Shown here: in pieces, positions 20,102 through 25,084 of the stretch
How positions within the stretch are numbered: the stretch's first letter is position 1
How the letters are laid out: each line of letters opens with the position of its first letter
Translations under genes and position numbers: made by a program
Notes under the pieces: generated by a model
The model's input: only the letters and a program-made list of their open reading frames with translations
The model's database searches: none
Told to the model about the DNA's origin: nothing
IMG/VR virus record: IMGVR_UViG_3300044798_000079
Span: 1 to 47,828 of that record
DNA: 47,828 bases
Reading direction: 5' to 3' (one strand)
Source of the DNA: a virus

Positions 20102-20974
20102 TCACTGACATATCTCACATGGCACGGCAGGGATAAGGGCTATCTTCCCCATCAAATCACATTGCCAGATGATATCCCTCATCCTTGTCATAGACTTATG
20201 TAAAAATATATTGTTATTTTTTTTCTCAATTTCGTTATCCATTTCTACAATCCTTTGATAGTCTTCTGGATACTCACTCTTCATTAATTCATATTCATCA
20301 TCATGTTGTAATGGACACATGATACAGGATGACCTAGCAGGATCGGGCCAACCAAGAGAGCGGATAAGGAATAGACATTGATAACGAGAGAAATTCATAT
20401 CAATCAAAGGATAATGATTCGATATCCAATCAAGATTTGATTGTTTCTGCCTTTGACTTTCGTCTGTTGAAATGCCTATCCAACTCTTAGCCCTTTTAAC
20501 CCCGATTGAACGCAGGTATTGACGCATGAGTGCAACCTTCCATGTCCCACTGCACATCGTGTAGAGCCGTTGGATATTACCATCTTCTGTTTTTTTAAAA
20601 GCAGGGATAACAATCATCCCAGATTCATTGAACAATTTATTGTCGGGTGTATTGAGCGTTTTAAAATCAACTCCAACTTTATTACATGCCGGAATCAATA
20701 CCCTTCGAGCATAATCAAGCGTTCCGTGCTTTTCGTAACCAGTATCAACCATAAGAACTAAATCTGGCTTTGGTAATTCTCCCTTATATACCATCGCAAT
20801 CATGGCTGTTGATTGAACACCTCCACCGCAAGAGAGGACATTGAATTCCTTAACTCCGTCCATTCTAATTCGTTGTTTATCTTTGTTGCTGCAAGCACGA
20901 GAGCAATAATTAACAATAGATCTCTCCGTGTTAAATTCTTTAGAGCATTCTGGATTTAGGCATATTTTTTTCAT
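20102..20974 (-). CDS. PAPS-reductase-like PP-loop ATP pyrophosphatase with N-terminal zinc finger
   Basis: 290 residues from the ATG at 20974. The N-terminus (CLNPECSKEF ... YCSRACSNKD) is a four-Cys finger. Then comes the PP-loop SCGGGVQSTAM and the family pattern MVDTGYEKHGT. Later cysteines (SSCIMCP; CEICQ at the end) may bind a metal. Such proteins are frequent in phages and activate a substrate by adenylation. A sulfur-transfer or DNA/RNA-modification role, by analogy with DndC, is possible but unproven. It overlaps the HNH gene start-to-stop and precedes the terminase. Confidence 0.8.
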   Translation of the reverse strand: MKKICLNPECSKEFNTERSIVNYCSRACSNKDKQRIRMDGVKEFNVLSCGGGVQSTAMIAMVYKGELPKPDLVLMVDTGYEKHGTLDYARRVLIPACNKVGVDFKTLNTPDNKLFNESGMIVIPAFKKTEDGNIQRLYTMCSGTWKVALMRQYLRSIGVKRAKSWIGISTDESQRQKQSNLDWISNHYPLIDMNFSRYQCLFLIRSLGWPDPARSSCIMCPLQHDDEYELMKSEYPEDYQRIVEMDNEIEKKNNNIFLHKSMTRMRDIIWQCDLMGKIALIPAVPCEICQ

Positions 20975-21305
20975 CTGGTTCAATTAAATCCTGGTGAAAA
21001 TTAGGTGTATGACATGAAGCGCACACACCCTCGCCATTGTTTAGATCGATGTTCTTCCAGTTATTATCTTTGTGATGTGCTACTGTTGCGGGGGTGAGAA
21101 TTCCTTTTCTTAAACAGGACTGACACAGGGGATCACGATGTAGAATTGCTTCTCTCCAACGCTTGTGACCATTGGATAGATAGTGCTTTTGCTGTTCCTT
21201 TTCTTCAGGTATGTAGAGTCTAATATGCTTGGGTCTATGGGTAGGACACCACTTTCCTTCGGTGAGTAGTTCAGGACAACGAGGTGAAGCACATTGCTTA
21301 TACAA
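20940..21305 (-). CDS. HNH endonuclease (packaging-associated)
   Basis: 121 residues. The ββα-metal core reads CQSCLRKGILTPATVAHHKDNNW ... NGEGVCASCHTPNFH, with the HH pair and two CxxC metal knuckles. An extra N-terminal finger (C-x4-C ... CPTH) is present. The only full-length start is TTG at 21305. HNH proteins next to the large terminase act with it in cutting at cos in HK97-like phages, which fits here. Confidence 0.88.
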   Translation of the reverse strand: MYKQCASPRCPELLTEGKWCPTHRPKHIRLYIPEEKEQQKHYLSNGHKRWREAILHRDPLCQSCLRKGILTPATVAHHKDNNWKNIDLNNGEGVCASCHTPNFHQDLIEPDEKNMPKSRML

Positions 21306-21369
21306 TCATAATACCACGCTTTATCTAAAGTTTAGTATTTCTAAACAAAGAATATGATATAGAAGTACC

Positions 21370-21396
21370 GTTATATTAAACAGAAAATAATGTCAA
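21370..21396 (-). promoter_or_regulatory. Possible promoter upstream of the packaging/late genes
   Basis: On the minus strand TTGACA (21396-21391) is followed after 15 bp by TATAAC (21375-21370). The spacing is short of the optimum. A small hairpin GTTTAG-TATTT-CTAAAC (21330-21346) lies between it and the HNH start. The 155-bp gap before the HNH gene is otherwise empty. Confidence 0.3.
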
Positions 21397-21460
21397 GGTA
21401 GGAATCAACGGATAGGATGGTTGTAGATGGGAATAAAAGGGAATAGAAAGGAAAGATTGA

Positions 21461-21649
21461 CTAATTTTTATTTTTGTTTCGTGTTCTCATCCAATTATCA
21501 ATTTCGGAAGGATCTGCGGCAGGCTTATTCTTGGGCAATCTAACAATAGGAAGGTGATGTTTTGTCGCATAATACTGGGCCTGTTTATCGGAACAACCGA
21601 TATAATTACCTATTTCTTTCCAACCATAAAGCCAGCCGCTTTCTGTCAT
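21461..21649 (-). CDS. Small winged-HTH protein (excisionase / Nu1-like DNA binder)
   Basis: 62 residues: a Y/G-W-KEIGNYIGCSDKQAQYY HTH followed by a LPIVRLPKNKPAADPSEIDNWM wing, the MerR/excisionase helix-turn-helix pattern also used by the DNA-binding domain of lambda-type small terminases. It is directly upstream of the HNH and terminase genes, so a small-terminase-like cos binder is possible. An excisionase is the alternative. The site AAGGAGGACC precedes the ATG. Confidence 0.7.
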   Translation of the reverse strand: MTESGWLYGWKEIGNYIGCSDKQAQYYATKHHLPIVRLPKNKPAADPSEIDNWMRTRNKNKN

Positions 21650-21667
21650 TGGTCCTCCTTAAAAAGT

Positions 21668-21779
21668 GCGGGGTACAGATGGGCCACGCTATCCATCACT
21701 GTTCTCAGCAAGACTTTAGCTTCTGATATTTTAGAACTTGGGTAAATGATTCCAAGGAATCAAACACTTGCGACCCCGC
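21668..21779. repeat. Inverted-repeat intergenic region (possible cos or regulatory site)
   Basis: A 130-bp gap holds GCGGGGT (21668-21674) matched by ACCCCGC (21773-21779), plus a local dyad TGATTCC-AA-GGAATCA (21747-21762). The location just upstream of the small DNA-binding gene and the packaging genes makes it a reasonable cos candidate. Nothing shows cutting directly. Confidence 0.4.
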
Positions 21780-21782
21780 TTA

Positions 21783-21983
21783 TTATTTTCTTTTAGATGA
21801 TTCCTTTCTTAGGGCATTGTTAATACAATATTTTATATATTCATATTCTTCTGTGTTCATATTTTTTTTTAATATGCACATTAAAGATATTATCGGAAGC
21901 ATTTTATCGACAAATTTCAACATTCTTTTTTCATCCGAGGGAGTGATAAAAATACCGTTTAGAATAATTTGATCTTCGGGCAT
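21783..21983 (-). CDS. Small hypothetical protein
   Basis: 66 residues, helical, beginning MPEDQIILNGIFITPSDEKRM. The ribosome site AAAGGATAATC supports the start. It follows TIGR array A in the same direction. No family is recognised. Confidence 0.6.
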   Translation of the reverse strand: MPEDQIILNGIFITPSDEKRMLKFVDKMLPIISLMCILKKNMNTEEYEYIKYCINNALRKESSKRK

Positions 21984-22048
21984 TGATTATCCTTTCATGA
22001 GTAGAGGTTTAACCTAATCCACCCCCAAAGGTATAATATGTTAAGTTA

Positions 22049-22156
22049 CGCATGTTGACCCTGGGTTTCAAATGGGAACTCGCTCGCACAACCCGACTGG
22101 GTTTCAGTTCAACCTTCGCTCGCACCTATACCTTGGGTTTCATGGGGGTAATCGCT
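22049..22156 (-). repeat. TIGR array A: three 36-bp guide-RNA units
   Basis: Exactly 108 bp = 3 x 36. Read on the minus strand each unit is AGCGA - 9 variable - TGAAACCCA - 9 variable - TGCG, where TGCG|AGCGA joins consecutive units. Variable pairs in order: TTACCCCCA/AGGTATAGG, AGGTTGAAC/GTCGGGTTG, GTTCCCATT/GGGTCAACA. The conserved blocks are perfect in all three units apart from the outer edges, while the 9-mers are unrelated. This is the two-spacer architecture of TIGR arrays, whose RNAs are 36 nt. It starts 8 bp after the stop of the coiled-coil gene and is probably on the same transcript as array B and the tas gene. That these are guide RNAs is inferred from the architecture and the adjacent Tas-like gene. 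Confidence 0.88.
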
Positions 22157-22164
22157 TTATCCCA

Positions 22165-22815
22165 TTACAACGTAGCAGAACGTTGTATCGTGTTATTATG
22201 TTTATCAAATAGCTTCCTGATGCTGGTAACTGTTTGAGCTGTTACCTTGAGCTTTTCGATCTGCTCATTGAGTTCATTGATCTTTTTCATGGCTACCCGT
22301 AGAGCTTCTTTCGTCTTGTCATGTGTTGCCTTTTCATGTTCATACATGGCCTTCCAGTCGGTAATTTCCCTTTTTACCTTTGGCGTTTTCCGGTACTTCT
22401 CGATAATGGTCTCCATGTTTTTTCTCGACATTGGTGTTTTATGTGCAGCAGCCTCATGTTGAATTTCAGAAATAACTTTGTCAACCTTCATCCCTCCGCA
22501 CACCCTATCAATCTTTGCTACCATTCCTACTCCATATTCGATGGCATAAGTGGGGAACTTAGAAAATGCCCTTACATTTTCTCGATATGTTCCTTCCCGA
22601 ATAGTAAACCGATCTTCAAGGTAAGCCCAGAATGAGGACTTTTTGTAATGTGGATTTTCCTTGTAGCGGTAGCTTGTTCTCAAATATTCAAGGCATTCGT
22701 ACATTTCCTTCTGATGTTCCCTTGATAGAATGTGCAACTTCTCAATCTTGGTTTCGAGTTCTGTGATACTTACACCATCATACTTTGTTACTTTTTTTTC
22801 TTCTTGCTTTTCCAT
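22165..22815 (-). CDS. Coiled-coil protein encoded between the two TIGR arrays
   Basis: 216 residues. The N-terminal half has a helix-rich domain with SFWAYLEDRFTIREGTYRENVRAFSKFP, loosely like the HTH-type segment (EEYCKERWDLKRQRAYELIGA) of the plus-strand gene at 29126. Residues about 145-200 form a long charged coiled coil. A strong ribosome site (GAGGAGAACTC) follows the end of array B, and the stop is 8 bp before array A. Position makes it a candidate accessory of the TIGR locus, or simply a phage DNA-binding protein into whose flanks arrays were placed. No family is recognised with certainty. Confidence 0.75.
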   Translation of the reverse strand: MEKQEEKKVTKYDGVSITELETKIEKLHILSREHQKEMYECLEYLRTSYRYKENPHYKKSSFWAYLEDRFTIREGTYRENVRAFSKFPTYAIEYGVGMVAKIDRVCGGMKVDKVISEIQHEAAAHKTPMSRKNMETIIEKYRKTPKVKREITDWKAMYEHEKATHDKTKEALRVAMKKINELNEQIEKLKVTAQTVTSIRKLFDKHNNTIQRSATL

Positions 22816-22842
22816 TTGAGTTCTCCTCTCTTATTTTAAGTT

Positions 22843-23130
22843 CGCAAACTCATCATGGGTTTCATCTTTTCTCTCGCTCGCATCCCAATACTGGGTTTCA
22901 AACGTGGAGTCGCTCGCAGAATTTATTTAGGTTTCACGTCAACTTTCGCTCGCATTCTTTTATTGGGTTTCAAGAAGTCCGTCGCTCGCACACGTTCTTT
23001 GGATTTCAGCATTTCAATCGCTCATCTTTTACGGCCTCGCCTCAATATTGGGAGGGGACGCAAGGCGGTAATGGGTTTTATGGGCCTCCTCGCTCGCATT
23101 ATTCACCTGGATTTTAAACGGTTTTTCGCT
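22843..23130 (-). repeat. TIGR array B: eight 36-bp units, one degenerate
   Basis: 288 bp = 8 x 36 in strict register. From the 5' end (minus strand) units 1-2 (23130-23059) have loops TAAAATCCA and TAAAACCCA and lie inside the tas coding region. Unit 3 (23058-23023) is degenerate but exactly 36 bp, with TGAGGCGAG at the loop position; it contains the tas stop codon. Units 4-8 (23022-22843) have the edge TGCGAGCGA and the loop TGAAACCCA, with single changes in two loops. Variable pairs: AAAACCGTT/GGTGAATAA, GGAGGCCCA/TTACCGCCT, then TTGAAATGC/AAGAACGTG, CGGACTTCT/ATAAAAGAA, AAGTTGACG/AATAAATTC, CTCCACGTT/GTATTGGGA, GAGAAAAGA/TGATGAGTT. The geometry is edge 9, spacer 9, loop 9, spacer 9. Confidence 0.9.
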
Positions 23131-23973
23131 CTCTTCCTCCCAGTAAAAAGGCTGAATTATATTGGTATGTCCCATCAATGCTCCCGCATAGGGCTCTGAT
23201 ACTGGCTTCCCATCAAGAGTCCTTGCCACTGTCCACCAATGAGCAAGAAATATTTTAACCACTTCATTCTTTGCCGCATTATGGACATGACCCTTTGACC
23301 ATTCAGGATGATTCTTTGCATGCTTTGCCTTTCTCAAAAGAAGCAGGGCTTTATACGGATGATCATCTTGTTGCCTATTGAATTGATCTCCGATATGAAA
23401 ACCCAATGTTCTGCCAACTGTTGACCAATTAGACAAAACACCCTTTTTTCGCTTCGGCATAACGCCATCGATTGTATGCCTTCCCATATAAGCCCACCAT
23501 TTCGATATTGTTGGGAAGTCCTTATATTCGAGGCGATGCACCAAAAGACCCTCTTTTGCTACCTTCTTACAATCAACACAAGCCAATGTCTTTATTGTTT
23601 TCCCTGTTTCGGTTTGCTTTTCTTTTTTCTCCAATTTCCCTCCGCAATCTTTACAGACAGGGATAAATCGATAATAAAACAGGATGATCATCTGGGCCGC
23701 TATGAACGGGCCAATCCCTGATATTTTCTTTGCCCAGGTTTCCCATACATCCCACTGTTTCAATTCTTTTTCGATCTCTCTGGTAATCCGTCCCTTTACT
23801 GTTTCCAATCCTTCCGTCTTATCTTGTCCCTTTAAAAGTGTATCAAATTCCTCATTCCTTTCTTCCCCTGGCAGAGATTGAAGTCTCTGTTTCGTTGATG
23901 CAATTAATTGGGTTATACCTGCATACGTTCTCACCAGAAAATTCAAATACTTGATCCCTGCTTCGTTTGTCAT
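23029..23973 (-). CDS. tasA: Tas-like protein (TasA type; IS110/Nop-related, no nuclease)
   Basis: 314 residues, ribosome site AAAGGAGGAG 6 bases before the ATG. Residues 1-80 are a long helical segment. KISGIGPFIAAQMI (83-96) and DFPTISKWWAYMGR (152-165) are the helix-hairpin elements of the C-terminal domain of IS110-type transposases, which is structurally close to the Nop domain. A zinc-ribbon insert (Cys107, 110, 132, 135) separates them. Residues 175-255 continue as the basic helical core (SNWSTVGRTLGFHIGDQFNR; HVHNAAKNEVVKIFLAHWW). There is no DEDD/RuvC or HNH domain. With two 36-bp dual-spacer arrays alongside, the best reading is the guide-RNA-binding Tas protein of a TIGR system, TasA type. 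The last 33 residues (282-314) are translated from array units 1-3. An IS110 transposase is the likely automatic annotation but lacks catalytic domain and element ends. Confidence 0.82.
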   Translation of the reverse strand: MTNEAGIKYLNFLVRTYAGITQLIASTKQRLQSLPGEERNEEFDTLLKGQDKTEGLETVKGRITREIEKELKQWDVWETWAKKISGIGPFIAAQMIILFYYRFIPVCKDCGGKLEKKEKQTETGKTIKTLACVDCKKVAKEGLLVHRLEYKDFPTISKWWAYMGRHTIDGVMPKRKKGVLSNWSTVGRTLGFHIGDQFNRQQDDHPYKALLLLRKAKHAKNHPEWSKGHVHNAAKNEVVKIFLAHWWTVARTLDGKPVSEPYAGALMGHTNIIQPFYWEEESEKPFKIQVNNASEEAHKTHYRLASPPNIEARP

Positions 23974-24019
23974 CTCGACTCCTCCTTTATTTGGTTAGTT
24001 GTTTGGATTACCTTCTTTT

Positions 24020-24202
24020 TCACCTCCCTTTTGGATTCCGACATATCACCACACTGACCGTCTCATCTGCGGGCCACTTACCCAAATCCATAATGGACAG
24101 ATCTTCAGTCTCCAGAATAATCCTTGCCGATTTATCTAAAGAAACAAGCGCCTTAGATGAGACCTGTTTAATTACTCCAATAAATTCGATTCTTTCATCC
24201 AT
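24020..24202 (-). CDS. Small hypothetical protein
   Basis: 60 residues, beta-rich with the run VIKQVSSKALVSLDKSARIIL, resembling small OB-like or DUF folds but not assignable. The start overlaps the previous stop (ATGA). The site AGAAAGGAAAA supports it. It lies directly upstream of the tas gene. Confidence 0.65.
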   Translation of the reverse strand: MDERIEFIGVIKQVSSKALVSLDKSARIILETEDLSIMDLGKWPADETVSVVICRNPKGR

Positions 24203-24396
24203 TATTTTTCCTTTCTTCCAATAGTAAAATCATTAGGATTTCCTTTTTTATGTCTTTTTAAGTAAATCAATAAATTTGACAAAAATACTGGAATTGGAAT
24301 AATCGCACCATAAGTTTGTAGAGATGTCTTGACCCTTATTCCGATAGAGGGACCTTCCCATCGATAAAGCAAAAGATGTTTAATAGATAGTTTCAT
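24202..24396 (-). CDS. Small hypothetical protein
   Basis: 64 residues, with one hydrophobic stretch (about residues 30-45, IIPIPVFLSNLLIYL) and a basic tail. The ribosome site AAGGAGGGAAGG precedes the ATG, within a leader repeated before the next gene upstream. Possibly membrane-associated. No family is recognised. Confidence 0.6.
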   Translation of the reverse strand: MKLSIKHLLLYRWEGPSIGIRVKTSLQTYGAIIPIPVFLSNLLIYLKRHKKGNPNDFTIGRKEK

Positions 24397-24421
24397 TATT
24401 CCTTCCCTCCTTACCCCGTTA

Positions 24422-24787
24422 TTACTCCGCGGGTTTCAAATTATTGTCCTGTTTATGCATTTTTTCAATCATTAATTCCAGTGTGGTCGGGTGAGTTGCT
24501 TGTATCCATCCTCCCGGCAATTTTCTCACATCAACATCAAAATCAATGATCTTTCCATCTTCATAATGATTGGTCACACCTATCTCGTACGGCGGAATAT
24601 TACAATTGAGGTCGATTTCATCAAATAGTGGTGAATACATGATATATTCAAACACATCTCTGTCAAAAAAATGCTCACAACGGAGAATGATAGCACCCAT
24701 TTTAGAAAGGAGCTTTGCTATAATTTCTGTATCCATTTGAATAAGATCGCCACTTACCATTACTTTTCCAAGTTTTCTTTTCATCAT
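24422..24787 (-). CDS. Hypothetical protein
   Basis: 121 residues (120 if the second of two tandem ATGs at 24784 is used, which has the better spacing to AAGGAGG). Mixed alpha/beta and acidic in the middle. No motif is recognised. It belongs to a run of small early genes sharing near-identical ribosome-site leaders. Confidence 0.65.
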   Translation of the reverse strand: MMKRKLGKVMVSGDLIQMDTEIIAKLLSKMGAIILRCEHFFDRDVFEYIMYSPLFDEIDLNCNIPPYEIGVTNHYEDGKIIDFDVDVRKLPGGWIQATHPTTLELMIEKMHKQDNNLKPAE

Positions 24788-24802
24788 CCCCTCCTTACCC
24801 CG

Positions 24803-25084
24803 TTATCCCTCCACGGGTTTTATGAGCTCCTTGTTTTTCAACAACGCCTTGCACTCCATACAGACCAGCACCGGCTGTTGTGCGGTCAATTCCTGGCCTG
24901 TCGGGGAGAGGAGGGCCGATACGGTAAAGACCTGAACGACTGGAATAAAATACTTGCAGCCGCATTCACATTGCCTCGGCATTGCATTTTTTAAATCAAC
25001 CTGAATCTGCTGACCTGGTCGTAATGGCCTCAGACCTCCCATTTCCTTACTGAACCAGTCCTTGCGTCGATTATTTTCTCCCAT
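24803..25084 (-). CDS. Zinc-ribbon small protein
   Basis: 93 residues with a CxCxC cluster (QCECGCKYF, about 38-45) and a distant CMEC (about 75-78), a four-Cys ribbon with a Gln/Thr-rich strand pair between. Similar small ribbons occur near phage replication genes; function is unknown. The leader TTGAAAGGAGAAACCA before the ATG is duplicated before the next gene upstream. Confidence 0.7.
   Translation of the reverse strand: MGENNRRKDWFSKEMGGLRPLRPGQQIQVDLKNAMPRQCECGCKYFIPVVQVFTVSALLSPTGQELTAQQPVLVCMECKALLKNKELIKPVEG

What the first reader, a model, noticed from the sequence alone, without database searches (positions are those of the whole stretch)
22049..22156. A second, separate TIGR array (3 x 36 bp) with the same conserved blocks
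108 bp in exact register, with edge and loop blocks identical to array B and different spacers. It lies 8 bp after the stop of the gene that separates the two arrays. Two arrays sharing one set of repeats point to a single Tas protein serving both, or to array duplication and divergence.
Basis: seen in the sequence. Interest (0 to 1): 0.88.

Follow-up and report, generated by a model that had tools for sequence, protein, structure and literature searches.

The report
Second guide-RNA array beside phage TasA
A virus genome carries a small second cluster of three guide-RNA units next to the gene for an RNA-guided DNA-binding protein (TasA); it belongs to the recently described TIGR-Tas family, and near-identical virus contigs show that the guide sequences in such arrays are swapped out while the repeats around them stay the same.

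Summary
Window 22049-22156 (minus strand) holds three 36-bp units, AGCGA-9 nt-TGAAACCCA-9 nt-TGCG, in the register of mature tigRNAs. Shuffled sequence gives almost no such units. The TIGR reading is supported: the window encodes one Nop-domain protein, TasA (23029-23973, no nuclease), whose model matches solved TasR and TasH. Array B has five units, and two more lie inside the tasA reading frame. The 216-aa gene between arrays A and B is a conserved helical, coiled-coil partner, possibly the published TasParB. An array in array A's slot, after that gene, occurs in eight other loci, so A is not a recent copy of B. Over 285 units, spacers carry about 0 bits per column, repeats mostly 1-2. New evidence on turnover: two contigs 98.9% identical over 4.5 kb differ in the spacers of three of four units in this slot, while repeats and flanks match. 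One guide is shared with the closest syntenic relative with spacers A and B exchanged, as the two-strand targeting model predicts. No natural target was found. It is a new member of a known kind.

The parts
22049..22156 (-). Array A: three 36-bp TIGR units in tigRNA register (AGCGA-spacer A-TGAAACCCA-spacer B-TGCG)
   Evidence: Sequence, unit scan and shuffles
22843..23022 (-). Array B: five TIGR units between tasA and the partner gene
   Evidence: Unit scan; repeats found
23059..23130 (-). Array B0: two TIGR units inside the 3' end of the tasA reading frame, separated from array B by a short linker that is also present in L005/G003
   Evidence: Unit scan; alignment with G003
23029..23973 (-). 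tasA: 314-aa Nop-domain Tas protein without nuclease domain, with an invariant CxxC...CxxC insertion
   Evidence: phmmer to TasR 9mty 8.5e-27 and TasH 8e-5; alignment of 13 homologues; AF2 model matches TasR 1.2e-9, TasH and IS621
22165..22815 (-). Conserved partner gene (216 aa, helical domain plus long C-terminal coiled coil; possible TasParB)
   Evidence: Homologues beside tasA in most close relatives; AF2 model; weak ParB-like structural match

Best explanation
Array A is the downstream guide cluster of one viral TIGR-TasA locus. The order is tasA with array B0 in its 3' end, array B, the 216-aa partner gene, array A, all on the minus strand and closely packed. Inferred steps: the locus is transcribed as one long RNA; TasA, with a host RNase, turns all arrays into 36-nt tigRNAs, each starting at about AGCGA and ending at about TGCG; a TasA dimer loaded with one tigRNA opens an 18-bp DNA site, spacer A pairing with one strand and spacer B with the other (site = spacer A + 0-2 bp + reverse complement of spacer B). 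As TasA has no nuclease it would bind and bend the site rather than cut it, and so block transcription or replication of foreign or host DNA, alone or with the partner protein. Arrays A and B thus form one guide set. Shown here: array anatomy, the Tas gene and its fold, the conserved layout, spacer variability and turnover. Inferred from the published system: processing, pairing and binding. Not known: the targets and the biological effect.
For: Exact unit structure and near absence from shuffles. Tas protein by sequence and fold. Arrays of 36 bp (37 bp in one group) by tasA in essentially all relatives. Spacer columns 0-0.14 bits, edge and loop columns mostly 1-2 bits over 285 units. An array in the same slot after the partner gene in G001, G002, G003, G006, G010, G015, G017 and L135. 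Spacers replaced with repeats kept between G006 and L131. Same guide with A and B exchanged between window and G003, 16 of 18 identical, never reached in 400 shuffles over all loci and once in 5000 for this pair of genomes. tigRNA binding is published for TasA, TasR and TasH, two-strand targeting for TasR and TasH (PMC12045711).
Against: No target: spacer pairs do not match their own or related contigs above shuffled pairs, and neither the conserved guide nor one array A guide gave convincing hits. No expression data. The edge box C here is CGA while the loop has CCA, although the paper says these motifs almost always covary. No minus-strand terminator-like site was found after array A.
Confidence: 0.8

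Rival explanations
1. Array A is a decayed or orphan remnant, no longer used; only array B supplies guides.
For: It is short: three units, where 5 to 15 is most common in the paper.
Against: All three loops and both complete edges are perfect consensus, better kept than in array B; the slot is occupied in several relatives.
Confidence: 0.1
2. Array A arose in this virus by recent duplication of array B, followed by divergence of spacers.
For: Identical repeat consensus.
Against: No guide of A resembles one of B and the same slot is occupied in eight other loci.
Confidence: 0.05
3. The guides serve regulation of the virus's own or its host's genes rather than action against other mobile elements.
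For: TasA has no nuclease; arrays sit directly in front of the start codons of tasA and the partner gene in several loci.
Against: Own-genome matches are not above shuffled spacer pairs; spacer replacement between near-identical contigs fits moving targets better than fixed regulatory sites.
Confidence: 0.25

Closest known systems
TIGR-TasA dual-repeat systems (Faure et al. 2025, PMC12045711)
   Same: Nop-only Tas protein, alternating edge and loop repeats, 9-nt spacers, 36-nt units, truncated edges at array ends
   Different: Arrays split over three places, one inside the tasA frame; edge box C is CGA against loop CCA; invariant CxxC...CxxC insertion in the Tas protein (not checked against the paper's TasA set)
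TasA-TasParB operons with arrays upstream, downstream or between (same paper)
   Same: Two-gene layout with arrays around and between the genes; partner is helical with a C-terminal coiled coil
   Different: Repeats are 9 nt here, 10 nt in the paper; ParB kinship of the partner could not be shown by profile comparison
TasR and TasH RNA-guided nucleases
   Same: Same Nop fold and guide architecture
   Different: No RuvC or HNH domain in this Tas protein
CRISPR arrays
   Same: Repeats conserved, spacers variable and replaced
   Different: Two repeats and two short spacers per unit; no adaptation genes are known for TIGR systems

Membership tests
TIGR dual-repeat array | Two alternating 8-12-nt repeats separated by about 9-nt spacers | tested here: met
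   Repeats 9 nt, spacers 9 nt, all three units
TIGR dual-repeat array | 36-nt unit with 5'- and 3'-truncated edges at array ends | tested here: met
   AGCGA at the start and TGCG at the end of arrays A, B and B0
TIGR dual-repeat array | Adjacent gene for a Nop-domain Tas protein | tested here: met
[quoted passage not shown]
   Box D UG in both; box C is CCA in the loop, CGA in the edge; other groups have edge/loop CCA/CTA, CTA/CTA or CCA/CCA
TIGR dual-repeat array | Transcribed and processed into 36-nt tigRNAs | not testable with these tools
   No RNA data
TasA | Nop domain without HNH or RuvC nuclease | tested here: met
   314 aa, starts with the coiled-coil part; no nuclease family match
TasParB | Operon with tasA, arrays between and around | tested here: met
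TasParB | Homology to ParB | tested here: inconclusive
   VIA-align best row is ParB 6sdk, Z 6.4, rmsd 3.2 over 97 residues, SopB Z 4.3, within the range helical bundles reach by chance; hhalign against five ParB proteins probability 0.1%; no Pfam ParB match

The most novel reading that the evidence does not exclude
TIGR arrays take up new guides as 18-bp pieces of double-stranded DNA in either orientation, and replace spacers in place while keeping the repeats, so this locus is an actively updated guide store without a known adaptation machinery.
Probability: 0.3. Interest if true: 0.85.

Novelty: new member of a known kind. Interest (0 to 1): 0.5.

Why it matters
The source and upkeep of TIGR spacers is named as an enigma in the discovery paper. 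The array family found here, with near-identical contigs that differ in spacers but not in repeats, and one guide kept with its halves exchanged between related viruses, gives a way to study spacer turnover and to infer targets.

Tried and rejected
Targets: spacer A + 0-2 bp + reverse complement of spacer B, up to three mismatches, in own and related contigs was no better than shuffled pairs or wrong geometries. The conserved guide as a pattern gave three viral hits, two of them the same stretch, and none in 34 genomes of the Methanoperedens family or 395 of the Smithella phylum. An array A guide (unit 2) gave seven viral hits in five unrelated contexts, mostly GC-rich, taken as chance. ParB origin of the partner: not supported by Pfam, PHROGs, NCBIfam, PDB sequence search or hhalign; Foldseek against PDB gave nothing significant, and against viral models only weak matches, some to DUF3102 proteins. 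Pattern hit L024 was read from its ORFs as a chance match in a tail-gene region. A swapped pair at four mismatches (G006 with L144) is at chance level.

Full report
Observation. The block at 22049-22156 is real and in exact 36-bp register on the minus strand. Each unit is AGCGA, nine variable bases, TGAAACCCA, nine variable bases, TGCG. The array starts 8 bp after the stop of the neighbouring gene. A scan of the window finds 10 such units on this strand and none on the other; 19 of 20 shuffled sequences give none and one gives one.

Layout. Reading along the minus strand: tasA (23973-23029), two units inside its 3' end (23130-23059), a linker, array B with five units (23022-22843), the 216-aa gene (22815-22165), array A (22156-22049). 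No minus-strand terminator-like site was found in 21300-24900, and promoter-like sites are no more frequent than in shuffles, so a single transcript is an inference from spacing.

Tas protein. The 314-aa product matches the solved TasR chain 9mty (8.5e-27) and TasH (8e-5) by sequence (profile 5.2e-42 and 6.6e-14). All 13 aligned homologues match PHROG 4285, labelled transposase. The AF2 model (mean pLDDT 77) matches TasR and TasH, then the IS621 recombinase. No nuclease domain was found. Four cysteines (C107, C110, C132, C135) are invariant in the alignment and look like a zinc ribbon.

Partner gene. Homologues of the 216-aa protein lie in 11 of the 13 related contigs, in 10 of 11 further contigs and in all four cellular contigs examined, beside tasA. 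A wider set of contigs found by array pattern has a recognisable partner in only six of 36 loci, with 21 holding a Tas match alone; some of these loci are short, so the partner may belong to one Tas clade. Its model is helical with a long C-terminal coiled coil. ParB is the best row of the structural second look (Z 6.4, rmsd 3.2, 97 residues), but this is within the range of chance for helical proteins and profile comparison is negative. The published TasA-TasParB operons have arrays upstream, downstream and between the genes (PMC12045711), which fits; the identity of the partner with TasParB stays open.

Relatives. Arrays of 36 bp accompany essentially every related tasA; one group has 37 bp. 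Over 285 units, spacer columns carry 0-0.14 bits and repeat columns mostly 1-2 bits. An array after the partner gene, the slot of array A, is present in G001, G002, G003, G006, G010, G015, G017 and L135 besides the window. Array A therefore belongs to the common layout and is not a recent copy of array B.

Turnover. Contigs G006 and L131 are 98.9% identical over about 4.5 kb. In the array after the partner gene each has four units; the spacers of the first three are unrelated, the fourth unit's spacers are identical, repeats match at 70 of 72 positions and flanks are nearly identical. In L169 and L172 (88.7% over 5.1 kb) the arrays are colinear, with two blocks of two whole units present in one and absent in the other, and different first and last units. 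L181 and L189 (99.9% identical) differ by one spacer base.

A shared guide with exchanged halves. The second unit of B0 in the window has spacers GGAGGCCCA and TTACCGCCT; the first unit of the corresponding array in G003 (L005) has TTACCGTCT and GGAGGCCCC. Under the published rule these name the same 18-bp site read from opposite strands, 16 of 18 positions identical. The orientation of the rule (spacer A followed by the reverse complement of spacer B) was derived here from the reported 3' overhangs. No swapped pair this close arose in 400 shuffles of spacer B over all units; for the window and G003 alone, one of 5000 shuffles reached it. With 571 unique units it remains the only swapped pair at two mismatches, expected 0.00 in 100 shuffles. 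It is one case, and common descent through an unknown rearrangement cannot be excluded.

Targets. None found.

Hosts. The nearest cellular match is a contig assigned to a Candidatus Methanoperedens MAG (L120, TasA 80% identical), others to Smithella, Desulfobacula and Desulfobacteraceae. L120 carries terminase- and portal-like frames around the locus (read from the translations), so it may be a virus binned with that genome.

Function. TasA without a nuclease is expected to bind rather than cut. The paper reports 36-nt tigRNAs bound by TasA and DNA targeting by TasR and TasH, and proposes blocking of transcription or replication for TasA. Which of these applies here is unknown.

Noticed in passing
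23059-23130 and L003, L004, L005, L013, L027: The tasA reading frame runs into the array without a stop, so that TIGR units encode a variable C-terminal tail (12 residues per unit) in several relatives but not in others.
   Followed up: partly
L122:2300 and L153 (loop at about 4650): A guide differing at two of 18 positions is shared by two loci for which no long near-identical stretch was found.
   Followed up: no
20940-21305 and 20102-20983: HNH-endonuclease-like gene and PAPS-reductase-like gene between the locus and the terminase gene.
   Followed up: no
L014 (10860-11290) and L088/L089 (4900-5490): Relatives with quite different repeats (TATAAATCA/TTAAAATCA) or 37-bp units.
   Followed up: no
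L120:5001-6888: A close relative of this locus sits in a contig assigned to a Candidatus Methanoperedens MAG, with edge repeat mostly TGTGAACGA.
   Followed up: partly
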